The notes beneath the pieces are model-generated. The model saw nothing but the letters and a program-made list of their open reading frames with translations. It searched no databases and was not told where the DNA came from. The translations under genes were made by a program, and so were the position numbers. A stretch of DNA of 60,196 nt from assembly GCA_017542305.1 (NCBI GenBank), contig JAFXXK010000001.1, positions 1 through 60,196 on the forward strand, given 5' to 3'. The stretch comes from a bacterium. Its GTDB lineage: Bacteria > Cyanobacteriota > Vampirovibrionia > Gastranaerophilales > Gastranaerophilaceae. The first letter of the stretch is position 1, and each line of letters opens with the position of its first letter. This document shows positions 30,312 through 32,935 of this stretch, piece by piece.

Positions 30312-30453
30312 CGGATTTTGTGCAGAGTGAAGTGAGCGAAGCGAACGAAACTCGAAGAAACCCGAAGTAAAATTAACGACAGCGCAGGGTTGAACAATAT
30401 TCCAAGAAACGTATTTACGAACGGATGACACGAACGAAGTGAGTTAATCCGGT
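30312..30453 (+). repeat. Spacer element 1 (rpsM-rpsK): CGGATT ... AATCCG stem
   Basis: CGGATT begins at the base after the rpsM stop; AATCCG (30446-30451) is its perfect reverse complement. The interior has many GAA-centred mini-repeats (GTGAAGTGAGCGAAGCGAAC). First of five related elements in this operon. The remaining 54 bp to rpsK are AT-rich with RBS AAAGGAAA. Confidence 0.6.
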
Positions 30454-30507
30454 AAGTAAATAAAAGACAAAATAAATTAATAAAGTACAAACATAAAGGA
30501 AACAAAA

Positions 30508-30894
30508 ATGGCAAGACCAGTAAAAACAAAGAAAAAAGAAAAGAAAAATGTATTGCAGGGAATTGTACATATTCAATCAACCTTCAACAATACAATCGTA
30601 ACTTCTACCGATACTCAAGGTAATGCTATTGCTTGGGCTACAGCAGGTGCAAGCGGATTTAAAGGTGCCAGAAAAGGTACTCCGTTCGCAGCACAGTCTG
30701 CAGCTGAATTAGTAGCTAAAAAATCAATCGACCAAGGTATGAAAAAGGTTGAAGTTTACATTAAAGGACCGGGCTCAGGCAGAGAAACAGCTATCAGAGC
30801 TATCCAACAGGCAGGATTGGAAATTACGTTAATCAGAGACGTAACCCCGATTCCGCACAACGGATGCCGTCCACCTAAGAAACGTAGAGTATAG
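30508..30894 (+). CDS. rpsK: 30S ribosomal protein S11
   Basis: 128 aa, full length. Contains [39 protein letters not shown] core ([20 protein letters not shown]) and the C-terminus [18 protein letters not shown], the S11 signature. It lies in the platform of the 30S subunit. Its stop codon is again followed at once by CGGATT. Confidence 0.98.
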
Positions 30895-31025
30895 CGGATT
30901 TTGCGTAGCGCGCCGTGTGAGTGCGAAGCACGAACCCAGCGCGAAGTTGCGCGAAGCAAAATGAGCGACTGTTTTACGAAGTAAAATAAAGCGAATTTCT
31001 GCGGAGCGTGAAGCAATAATCCAAG
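30895..31025 (+). repeat. Spacer element 2 (rpsK-rpsD): CGGATT ... AATCC stem with GAA mini-hairpins
   Basis: CGGATTTTG (30895-30903) pairs with CAA-T-AATCC (31014-31022), with one bulged T. The interior carries short stems closed over a GAA loop: GTGC-GAA-GCAC (30921-30931) and the perfect TTTTAC-GAA-GTAAAA (30972-30986). The 3' end, CGTGAAGCAATAATCCAAG, is nearly identical to the end of element 4b. Confidence 0.65.
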
Positions 31026-31044
31026 ATTAAAATGAAAACCAACC

Positions 31045-31092
31045 GGCAGGGGCTTGCGAAACAGCCAAATCGTAAACCATAGACGCCCTGCC
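31045..31092 (+). promoter_or_regulatory. Hairpin upstream of rpsD
   Basis: GGCAGGG (31045-31051) pairs with CCCTGCC (31086-31092), enclosing a 34-nt loop with an inner GGCT/AGCC alternative, 24 bases before the rpsD start. In other bacteria S4 represses its own operon by binding a leader structure; this could be such a site (inference). Confidence 0.35.
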
Positions 31093-31116
31093 ACAAGAAA
31101 AAGGAGAAATTAAAAA

Positions 31117-31719
31117 ATGGCTAGATATACAGGACCTTCTAATAAATTATTTAGAAACAAAAAAGTTAATGATTTGTCTAACAGAAAATTAACTTCATCA
31201 ATGAGACAAACTGCTTCAGGTCAACACGGTGCAGTAAGAAAGAAACTTTCAGAATATGCATTACATTTGGCTGAAAAGCAGAAAATCAGATTTACATATT
31301 TGGTAAGTGAAAAACAATTTGCAAAATATTACCGTGAAGCTGCAAGAAGAAAAGGCGTTACAGGTACTATTCTTTTGCAATTATTGGAATCAAGACTTGA
31401 TAATATTTTATTCCGTGCAGGTTTAGGTATTACAAGAAAACAAGCAAGACAAATTGTAAATCATGGTCACGTTCTTGTTAACGGAAAGAAAGTTGATATT
31501 CCTTCATATTCCGTAAAACAAGGCGATGTTATCACTATCAAAGCAAAAAGTGCAAGTTTTATGAAAGCAGTCGGAGAAATGATTGATATGCCTTGCAATT
31601 ATGCTTGGATGACAGTTGATAAAGATGCTTTAAAAATTACTTTCGACAGAATCCCTGAAAGAGAAGAATTGGATCCTGATATGAAAGAACAACTTGTAAT
31701 TGAATATTATTCTAAGTAG
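31117..31719 (+). CDS. rpsD: 30S ribosomal protein S4
   Basis: 200 aa. The N-terminal region lacks the zinc cysteines (C- form), with GPSNKLFRNKKVNDLSNRKL. The S4 RNA-binding domain is LESRLDNILFRAGLGITRKQ followed by ARQIVNHGHVLVNGKKVDIP. S4 nucleates 16S folding and often autoregulates the alpha operon. It lies between rpsK and rpoA, as in many bacteria but unlike most photosynthetic cyanobacteria, where I expect it elsewhere. Confidence 0.97.
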   Translation: MARYTGPSNKLFRNKKVNDLSNRKLTSSMRQTASGQHGAVRKKLSEYALHLAEKQKIRFTYLVSEKQFAKYYREAARRKGVTGTILLQLLESRLDNILFRAGLGITRKQARQIVNHGHVLVNGKKVDIPSYSVKQGDVITIKAKSASFMKAVGEMIDMPCNYAWMTVDKDALKITFDRIPEREELDPDMKEQLVIEYYSK

Positions 31720-31802
31720 CGGATTAAATGCTTAGTAAAGCAAAATCCAAAACGTAGCCGGTGTAGTCCGGCAGTAAATCCGAGAGGGTTTAAATCCAAG
31801 AT
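31720..31802 (+). repeat. Spacer element 3 (rpsD-rpoA): CGGATT ... AATCC
   Basis: CGGATT (31720-31725) directly follows the rpsD stop. Two partners exist: AATCCG at 31777-31782 and AATCCAAG at 31793-31800, the latter with the same one-base bulge (GGATT-AAA with TTT-A-AATCC). Internal hairpin GCCGG/CCGGC near 31757-31772. Confidence 0.55.
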
Positions 31803-31832
31803 AGTTATTTTTAAAACTAGGAGATTAAAAGA

Positions 31833-32801
31833 ATGGAATTAAAAATTAAATGCGTTAATACGACAACAAGTTCAGACGGTTCTCAATACGGTAAATTTGT
31901 AATCGAACCATTAGAAAAAGGTTTTGGTACAACTATCGGTAATTCTTTAAGACGTGTATTGTTATCAAGTCTTGAAGGTACTGCAGTAACTTCTGCAAGA
32001 ATAGAAGGTATTACACACGAATATACCGCAATTCCGGGCGTATTGGAAGATGTTATCGACGTAATGTTGAACTTAAAAGGATTGGTTGTTAAAACTGATT
32101 CTCCGGAACCTCAGCATTTGCGTATAGATGTTGACAAACCGGGTGCTGTACTTGCTTGTGATATTCAATTACCTGCAGGTGTAAAAGTAGTTAACCCTGA
32201 TTGGTTAATTTGTACTGTTGCTGAAGGCGGAAGCTTCCATGCTGATATCATTGTTGAAACAGGAAAAGGTTATGAACCTCACGATGTACCGAGAGATTCT
32301 AAAAATGTTTCAATTGATGTTCTTCCTATCGATGCAACATTTATGCCTATCAAAAGAGTTAGCTACAATGTAGAAAATACTCGTGTAGGAGATTCTATCG
32401 AATTTGATAAATTAACTTTGGAAATTTGGTCTAACGGTTCTATCGAAGTTACAACCGCATTGAGCCAGGCTTCTAACCTGTTAATCGATCACTTCATGCA
32501 GATAGCTTCAATCACAGGTCAGCCTGTAATTTCACCGGTTGCTCAAATCGAAGAAGCTATTGAAGATGATGAAGAAGTTCCTACAATGACTATTGAAGAA
32601 CTTGAATTGTCAGTAAGAGCTTATAACTGCTTAAAGAGAGCAAGCATAAACTCTATGGCTGAATTGTTAAAGAAATCAGAACATGATTTGTTGAACATCA
32701 AGAACTTCGGTAAAAAATCTTCTGACGAAGTAATCGAAAGATTGCACCATTTCGGTTTGGACTTAGCTCCTAATCCGGAAATCGAAGAAGAAATCGGATA
32801 G
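31833..32801 (+). CDS. rpoA: DNA-directed RNA polymerase subunit alpha
   Basis: 322 aa. N-terminal assembly domain: KFVIEPLEKGFGTTIGNSLR then RVLLSSLEGTAV, and MLNLKGLVVK. C-terminal domain (about 250-310): LELSVRAYNCLKRASINSMA, LLNIKNFGKKSSDEVIERL, which binds UP-element DNA and activators. The dimer scaffolds the polymerase. The stop codon is followed immediately by element 4a. Confidence 0.98.
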   Translation: MELKIKCVNTTTSSDGSQYGKFVIEPLEKGFGTTIGNSLRRVLLSSLEGTAVTSARIEGITHEYTAIPGVLEDVIDVMLNLKGLVVKTDSPEPQHLRIDVDKPGAVLACDIQLPAGVKVVNPDWLICTVAEGGSFHADIIVETGKGYEPHDVPRDSKNVSIDVLPIDATFMPIKRVSYNVENTRVGDSIEFDKLTLEIWSNGSIEVTTALSQASNLLIDHFMQIASITGQPVISPVAQIEEAIEDDEEVPTMTIEELELSVRAYNCLKRASINSMAELLKKSEHDLLNIKNFGKKSSDEVIERLHHFGLDLAPNPEIEEEIG

Positions 32802-32897
32802 CGGATTTCCGGACGAACGCAGTTCGGTAAGCAAAAGCTCCGAGACGGCAAAGTCGAAGACTTGAAGTCAAGGCAGATTGAGCGAAAAGGAAATCCG
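32802..32897 (+). repeat. Spacer element 4a (rpoA-rplQ): CGGATTTCC ... GGAAATCCG
   Basis: Starts at the base after the rpoA stop. CGGATTTCC (32802-32810) and GGAAATCCG (32889-32897) are perfect 9-bp reverse complements. The interior contains further GAAG-type short repeats (GACGGCAAAGTC, GACTTGAAGTC). Confidence 0.6.
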
Positions 32898-32902
32898 GGA
32901 AG

Positions 32903-32935
32903 CGGATTTTGTGTAACGTGAAACAATAATCCAAG
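32903..32935 (+). repeat. Spacer element 4b: minimal 33-nt copy
   Basis: A compact version: CGGATTTTGT (32903-32912) pairs with ACAA-T-AATCC (32923-32932), with the same bulged T as element 2, ending CCAAG. Comparison with element 2 shows the same ends with roughly 100 nt missing from the middle. Confidence 0.6.

What the first reader, a model, noticed from the sequence alone, without database searches (positions are those of the whole stretch)
30312..32935. Stem-forming elements start exactly at the stop codons of four ribosomal/RNAP genes
Seen directly: the bases right after the stop codons of rpsM, rpsK, rpsD and rpoA are CGGATT in all four cases. Each spacer later has AATCC(G), which can pair with it; rpoA-rplQ holds two copies. 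The pairing varies together: CGGATTTCC/GGAAATCCG in 4a, and GGATT-TTG/CAA-T-AATCC with a conserved single bulge in 2 and 4b, with an analogous bulge in 3. Elements 2 and 4b end almost identically (CGTGAARCAATAATCCAAG). The interiors are full of GAA-loop mini-hairpins (e.g. TTTTAC-GAA-GTAAAA). Neither rpmJ, rplQ nor infA has it. Inferred: structured RNA elements for processing, stop-codon coupling or mRNA stability, or a repeat that inserts at stop codons. I know of no such element in alpha operons.
Basis: partly seen in the sequence, partly recalled or inferred. Interest (0 to 1): 0.8.

Follow-up and report, generated by a model that had tools for sequence, protein, structure and literature searches.

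The report
Mobile hairpin repeats at stop codons
The bases after four ribosome-gene stop codons are copies of small mobile hairpin repeats that, inside operons of one bacterial family, sit exactly at stop codons; they resemble known bacterial REP repeats, but what moves them and why they keep to stop codons is open.

Summary
In detail: CGGATT follows the stops of rpsM, rpsK, rpsD and rpoA, each the left arm of a hairpin. The elements belong to two related dispersed repeats. Family A occurs in 38 of 191 sampled genomes of the bacterial family (16 of 41 genera), family B in 60 of 191 (29 of 41). Compensatory changes support the hairpins. Presence is patchy between close species, copies at different genes can differ by one base, and one clean pair shows a 152-nt insertion exactly at the rpmJ stop, junction ambiguous by 2 nt, no longer target duplication. 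In 195 r-protein spacers of the genus, all 15 first left arms lie at +1; six more are second copies. Of 97 strict A copies family-wide, 26 are at stops, 17 of them after r-protein genes; in convergent gaps 1 of 24. Nearest known kind: REP repeats, reported to supply TAG stops; these are longer, fewer, lack the GTAG tag and show no RAYT link. Verdict: new variant of a known kind; mobiliser and cause of the precision unknown.

The parts
30309..30407 (+). Element 1, family A, at the rpsM stop: TAA + CGGATTTTGTGCAG...GAACAATATTCC + AAGA; right arm carries one mismatch
   Evidence: RNA fold z -0.95
30422..30451 (+). Small second hairpin CGGAT...AATCCG in the rpsM-rpsK spacer; not assigned to a family
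   Evidence: read by eye
30892..31026 (+). Element 2, family A, at the rpsK stop: TAG + CGGATTTTGCGTAG...GAAGCAATAATCC + AAGA; bulged T in the stem; TTTTAC-GAA-GTAAAA hairpin inside
   Evidence: RNA fold -43.3 kcal/mol, z -1.93
31717..31748 (+). Element 3 at the rpsD stop: TAG + CGGATTAAATGCTTAGTAAAGCAAAATCC; short, related arms; family assignment inferred
   Evidence: z -3.08
32799..32897 (+). Element 4a, family B, at the rpoA stop: TAG + CGGATTTCC...GGAAATCCG
   Evidence: z -2.38
32901..32935 (+). Element 4b, minimal family A (29 nt arm to arm), behind 4a: AGC GGATTTTGTG...AACAATAATCC AAG
   Evidence: z -2.02
31045..31092 (+). Conserved rpsD leader between element 2 and rpsD (context, not part of the repeat)

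Best explanation
The elements are copies of non-autonomous, mobile palindromic repeats (families A and B, closed by GGATTTTGC/GCAA-T-AATCC, in some genera GGATTTTGC/GCAAAATCC, or by GGATTTTC/GAAAATCC; often AGC on the left and AAGA on the right). Shown: copies are dispersed; they come and go between close species; copies at different genes differ by a single base; in one clean case the element inserted at a stop codon with no target duplication beyond a 2-nt ambiguity. Inferred: they move as a folded single strand with help in trans from an unidentified enzyme. Inferred: between co-transcribed genes copies survive mainly in sense at the stop codon, because most other places would break a reading frame or the structured leader of the next gene, and because the AG of the left flank can complete TAG. 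Interiors then grow, shrink or are swapped by slippage or template switching, leaving tandem and half copies.
For: Dispersed: A pattern in 38 of 191 genomes, reversed control pattern in 0 of 191, up to 19 copies; B in 60 of 191, up to 19, control in 11 of 191. Patchy: 17 of 195 r-protein spacers of the 13 genomes of the genus (own included) start with an arm-like YGRATT. Clean insertion: the rpmJ stop is empty in G147 and holds a 152-nt insert in G057; left flank 113 of 120 identical, right flank 85 of the first 86 (90 of 120 without gaps), junction slide 2 nt. Copies at different genes: G129 rplW and G020 rpmJ differ at 1 of 116 bases; the rpoD-stop copy of G155 and a free copy of that genome at 1 of 127. 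G057 and G109, alike at rpmG and rplW, carry different inserts at the rpmJ stop. Vestiges: G164 rpmG, G001 rpoA. Truncated second copies: G003, G004, G006. AGC before GGATT: 20 of 23 stop-adjacent A copies, 18 of 55 other A, 17 of 20 other B. TAG at 11 of 17 element-bearing stops against 52 of 178 others, Fisher p 0.005; 24 of 26 strict stop-adjacent copies.
Against: No mobiliser found: PF01797 (Y1/RAYT) is in 8 of 18 genomes but not in G000, G001, G004, G006, G010, G191, G195, G078, G193 or G129, and its loci hold no complete element. Tolerance alone does not easily put all 15 first arms at +1. AGC is missing in the clean insertion (TAA-CGGATT) and in a copy in the rplB leader loop (GAA-GGATT), so it may be acquired rather than carried. 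The excess of r-protein genes (17 of 26) is not explained by tolerance. Only one clean empty/filled pair is in hand.
Confidence: 0.68

Rival explanations
1. Recruited RNA insulator: the hairpin at the stop codon of a co-transcribed gene keeps terminated ribosomes from running into the structured leader of the next r-protein gene, or protects the upstream message; selection, not insertion, sets the position.
For: All 16 r-protein spacers with arm motifs carry them in sense (both strands searched). Stop-adjacent A copies: 19 of 29 between co-directional genes, 1 of 24 in convergent gaps; B 2 of 6 and 0 of 7. 17 of 26 strict stop-adjacent copies follow r-protein genes, others follow rpoA, BipA, a sigma-70 factor and a PEP-utilising enzyme. 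Several r-protein genes of this genus have their own conserved leader (by eye, for rpsD). Compensatory changes.
Against: Most species of the genus lack an element at any given gene. Hairpins are kept in copies outside operons too (mixes both). Copies also follow two phage tail genes, and one sits in a leader loop.
Confidence: 0.2
2. Frame-aware targeting: insertion goes through the mRNA or the terminating ribosome, so that stop codons themselves are the target.
For: All 15 first left arms in 195 r-protein spacers lie at +1, the other 6 arms are second copies; r-protein and phage genes are hit; the clean case is exactly at TAA.
Against: 55 of 78 A copies with both arms are not at a stop, including two behind terminator-like T-runs and one in a leader loop. 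No reverse transcriptase or RNA intermediate was looked for.
Confidence: 0.07
3. Ordinary r-protein leader, attenuator or intrinsic terminator.
For: Position in r-protein operons.
Against: No Rfam match at E up to 1 in 29000-34500; AAGA rather than a T-run follows the right arm; not kept at the same gene between species, unlike the leaders downstream.
Confidence: 0.05

Closest known systems
REP repeats, GTAG- and CGTC-tagged (PMC3733652; abstract, passages and section 15 seen)
   Same: Interspersed imperfect palindromes, some with one-base bulges; 3' side of genes preferred; [quoted passage not shown] dimers and groups
   Different: Here 29-330 nt (A) and 77-301 nt (B) instead of 20-40 bp; flanks AGC...AAGA instead of GTAG or CGTC; at most 19 strict copies per genome; no RAYT gene in several hosts; excess at r-protein stops
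Small MITE-like repeats such as enterobacterial RU-1/2/3 (PMC2759123, start of abstract seen)
   Same: About 100-170 bp, dispersed, intergenic, without genes of their own
   Different: No target duplication beyond 2 nt in the one clean case; no parent transposon known (only PF01797 searched); placement at stop codons
Rickettsial palindromic elements (as described in PMC3733652, section 15)
   Same: Palindromes that can sit in reading frames; one decayed copy here may lie in an ORF (L092, by eye)
   Different: Here copies in operons sit at the end of the frame and do not add codons

Membership tests
REP (GTAG/CGTC class) | Unpaired GTAG or CGTC tag at one end | tested here: not met
   AGC in 20 of 23 stop-adjacent and 18 of 55 other A copies, base before it T, A, G or C; no GTAG or CGTC consensus
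REP (GTAG/CGTC class) | 20-40 bp palindrome | tested here: not met
   78 A copies of 29-330 nt (two of 29), 23 B copies of 77-301 nt
REP (GTAG/CGTC class) | Supplies TAG stop codon to flanking ORFs | tested here: inconclusive
   TAG at 24 of 26 strict stop-adjacent copies and AGC also at non-stop copies, but the clean insertion keeps TAA; parallel reported in PMC3733652
REP (GTAG/CGTC class) | High copy number (usually over 100 per genome, start of abstract of PMC2817692) | tested here: not met
   At most 19 strict copies; degenerate copies not counted
REP (GTAG/CGTC class) | RAYT transposase in the genome and beside repeats | tested here: not met
   PF01797 in 8 of 18 genomes, absent from G000, G010, G191; single 8-base arm motifs in 7 of the 9 loci, complete elements in none. 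Loss of the enzyme cannot be excluded
MITE | Terminal inverted repeats | tested here: met
   closing stems of 9 and 8 pairs
MITE | Target-site duplication | tested here: not met
   one clean pair, 2-nt slide only
MITE | Parent transposon with the same ends | not tested
   No genome-wide scan for transposases other than PF01797
r-protein leader or other Rfam family | Match to a covariance model | tested here: not met
   (window, gathering): 0; (29000-34500, E up to 1): 0
Intrinsic terminator | T-run after the stem | tested here: not met
   AAGA or similar follows the right arm

The most novel reading that the evidence does not exclude
A mobile hairpin family whose insertion is directed to translation stop codons of highly translated operons, that is, informed by the reading frame through mRNA or terminating ribosomes, with the copy able to rebuild the stop codon and later serving as a ribosome barrier in front of the next gene's leader.
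Probability: 0.08. Interest if true: 0.85.

Novelty: new variant of a known kind. Interest (0 to 1): 0.5.

Why it matters
Hairpin repeats come and go, exactly at stop codons, in some of the most conserved operons of a bacterial family; the empty/filled sites make stop-codon preference of small repeats testable. It also warns that covarying hairpins next to r-protein genes need not be regulatory leaders: here both kinds lie side by side in the same spacers.

Tried and rejected
RAYT as mobiliser: PF01797 in 8 of 18 genomes, not linked to elements. Viral vector: CGGATTTTGCGTAGAGTG has 0 hits in viral contigs, though two copies follow phage tail genes. One genome-contig scan with a 24-base pattern gave 3 loci, one titled Cyanobacteria bacterium UBA2855, two titled uncultured bacterium. 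Rfam: nothing (76 for a relative's S10 operon). Looser patterns were noisy: GGATTTTGYGYA hits 13 of 13 genus genomes with the reversed control in 6, many hits being coding; GNRGCAATAATCCA hits 7 of 13, control in 2. Single-sequence folding is weak evidence: RNA z -0.95 for element 1, -1.93 to -3.08 for the others; DNA z of the sense strand +1.22, -1.06, -2.30, -2.01 for elements 1, 2, 4a, 4b. Loop bias: of 40 distinct hairpins with three-base loops 18 are GNA; of 32 with four-base loops 13 are GNRA and 8 GNYA; this would suit a folded single DNA strand but does not decide between DNA and RNA. The tree has 124 columns for 72 rows and 32 of 69 inner branches under 80. A vertically kept element was rejected as the general case because copies group by genus (21 changes, shuffled mean 49.0). 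The rpoD empty/filled comparison was not clean.

Rows dropped or limited: one search stopped on an error; misread loci on the minus strand, redone; one search gave nothing because of a wrong option. One search leaves out spacers under 7 nt and two left-open ones; its rule [CTA]G[GA]ATT[TC] counts CGGATT/TGGATT starts followed by A (G000 and G005 rpsD, G002 rpsK) as 'others', and its '17 at +1' holds by that rule, so one search counts arms anywhere instead. One search keeps only copies with both arms found and includes at least one likely chance hit (L048). 'Stop-adjacent' means after a stop on the element's own strand, so sense orientation is built in, except. One search drops 10 of 78 A and 4 of 23 B copies at locus edges; gene calls are crude (at least 3 of 23 stop-adjacent A copies fall in odd contexts). 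One search used 31 of 56 A copies of suitable length, chosen by hand with right arm CAATAATCC or near it, so the bulge looks more constant than it is; one search used 16 of 21 B copies plus four from the window and genus, one (L033) cut short. Structures were derived from the same alignments. Part of the B pattern hits are coding chance hits.

Papers: PMC3733652 passages and section 15; all others only as listings with starts of abstracts (25 of 81 shown; 57: 15 of 3,767; 58: 10 of 48; 88: 12 of 1,175; 89: 1 of 1). Searches for such repeats or leaders in this bacterial group: (0 papers each).
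Full report
The observation. CGGATT follows the stop codons of rpsM, rpsK, rpsD and rpoA at 30312, 30895, 31720 and 32802. Each is the left arm of a hairpin. Elements 2 and 4b close with GGATTTTG arms and a bulged T, element 4a with GGATTTCC/GGAAATCC, element 3 with a short stem holding a 3x1 internal loop, and element 1 with a mismatched arm AATATTCC followed by AAGA (the one U-U of 31 rows). 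In 459,402 bases of the same genome with 439 called genes, CGGATT at +1 of a stop occurs at rplC, rpsK, rpsD and rpoA, plus rpsM, which the gene caller missed.

What they are. A strict family A pattern is in 38 of 191 sampled genomes of the bacterial family and 16 of 41 genera, the reversed control in none; one genome has 19 copies. A family B pattern is in 60 of 191 genomes and 29 of 41 genera, the control in 11 genomes, and part of its matches are coding chance hits. Alignments and pair counts show kept stems: A has 95.6% of cells paired and 72 cells changed on both sides (shuffled mean 22.0), B 97.2% and 82 (24.5); sliding the partner by one to three columns destroys this. Against it: further pair types do not exceed the shuffles (A 432, B 172 of 500 as high), pairs with a double change in A exceed them only weakly (16 of 500), the structures come from the same alignments, and the closing stem of A hardly varies, partly because the search pattern fixed its left arm and I chose rows with the CAATAATCC arm. 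Covariation shows a kept hairpin; it does not say whether RNA or single-stranded DNA matters.

They move. Of 195 r-protein spacers in the 13 genomes of the genus (own included), 17 begin with an arm-like start. At any one gene most species lack it, and the same stop may carry A, B or another repeat in different species. In a second genus the rpmJ stop is empty in G147, G129 and G084, holds A-like elements in G020, G164 and G057 and another repeat in G109. G147 against G057 is a clean pair: 152 nt between TAA and the same downstream sequence, left flank 113 of 120 and right flank 85 of the first 86 bases identical (90 of 120 without gaps), junction slide 2 nt. The rplW and rpmG stops of this genus show the same coming and going; in G057 and G109 the rplW-rplB copy lies in the loop of the rplB leader instead. 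In a tree of 72 A copies they group by genus (21 changes, shuffled mean 49.0) and stop-adjacent and free copies intermingle (12 changes, no shuffle made); the rplW copy of G129 and the rpmJ copy of G020 differ at 1 of 116 bases, the rpoD-stop copy of G155 and a free copy at 1 of 127. Half copies and truncated second copies mark decay and slippage.

Where they sit. In the 195 spacers 21 left arms were found at any position: 15 at +1, six at 100-121 nt, each behind a first element. Of 97 distinct strict A copies in the loci held, 26 begin at stop+1 after an ORF (recounted): 17 after r-protein genes (rpsD, rpsK twice, rplC four times, rplW, rpmG twice, rpmJ twice, rpsM twice, rplB, rplF, rpsF), one after rpoA, one BipA, one sigma-70 factor, two after a PEP-utilising enzyme (PPDK by recall), two phage tail genes and two copies of a 60-residue protein without a family. 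I ran 20 of the 26 through Pfam: 17 had a family, L223, L053 and L198 none; PHROGs puts L223 with baseplate hubs and L179 with tape measures. The other six are judged by the same C-terminal ends. At least one more copy, rpsM of G004, is at a stop but was cut by the locus edge. By gene context, A copies are at the stop in 19 of 29 co-directional gaps in the element's direction, 1 of 7 in the other direction, 1 of 24 convergent and 2 of 8 divergent gaps; B in 2 of 6, 0 of 2, 0 of 7 and 0 of 4. All 16 r-protein spacers with arm motifs carry them in sense; the five antisense matches are arms of those palindromes or of element 3. Other copies lie in intergenic composites, two behind terminator-like T-runs.

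Stop codon. Element-bearing stops in the genus are TAG in 11 of 17 against 52 of 178 others (p 0.005); family-wide, strict stop-adjacent copies have TAG in 24 of 26, related copies counted singly. AGC also precedes many copies away from stops (18 of 55 A, 17 of 20 B), so the AG of TAG may be the flank of the repeat. The clean insertion and the leader-loop copy lack AGC, so this stays an inference. PMC3733652 (section 15) reports that termini of GTAG-tagged REPs often provide the TAG stop to flanking ORFs, the nearest precedent found.

How it most likely works. A non-autonomous hairpin repeat is copied to new places by an unidentified activity; inside operons copies persist mainly at the stop, in sense, because much of the rest is reading frame or leader. 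I give this 0.68. The insulator reading (0.2) explains operon bias and r-protein excess better, but not the patchiness. Frame-aware insertion (0.07) explains the precision but not the 55 of 78 A copies away from stops.

Known kinds. It works like a REP or a small MITE. It is not filed as a member of either: tag, size, copy number and RAYT link of REPs and the target duplication of MITEs were tested and not met.

Noticed in passing
window 31045-31092: Conserved structured rpsD leader (GGCAGGGGCTTGCG...CGTAAACC...GCCCTGCC) in 12 genomes of the genus: 13 pairs, 5 with changes on both sides, perhaps a GGCT/AGCC pseudoknot (by eye); no Rfam match. Candidate new S4 leader.
   Followed up: partly
L165 1813-9030 and orthologues: Many r-protein genes of the S10 operon have their own conserved, leader-like 5' region, judged by eye (rplC over 150 nt, rplD, rplB, rplN, rplX, rplE); no Rfam match at E up to 0.5 in L165 1000-9500.
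   Followed up: partly
window 29806-29845: rpmJ-rpsM spacer motif GAGGAAGTATTTATCCCTC...AAAAAAATCTAAC recurs with few changes in another genus of the family: candidate rpsM leader.
   Followed up: no
window 31793-31832: Conserved AATCCAAGATAGTTATT...ACTAGGAG before rpoA in the genus looks like a repeat's right end fused to the rpoA leader.
   Followed up: no
L171 (G002, rplC-rplD and rplB-rpsS spacers): A third repeat family (CCGGTGTGAGTGCCGG...CACAGGAGC) near stops, followed by a direct repeat that includes locus-specific bases (AAATGCGACAG; ACCGCGAAAG).
   Followed up: no
L092 (G000:C16:208220): A decayed family A copy lies inside what looks by eye like a reading frame.
   Followed up: no
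L054, L074-L089 (G010): Family A copies nested in a larger composite (CCCTC...GGGAGGC | A | AAGACAAGGG).
   Followed up: no
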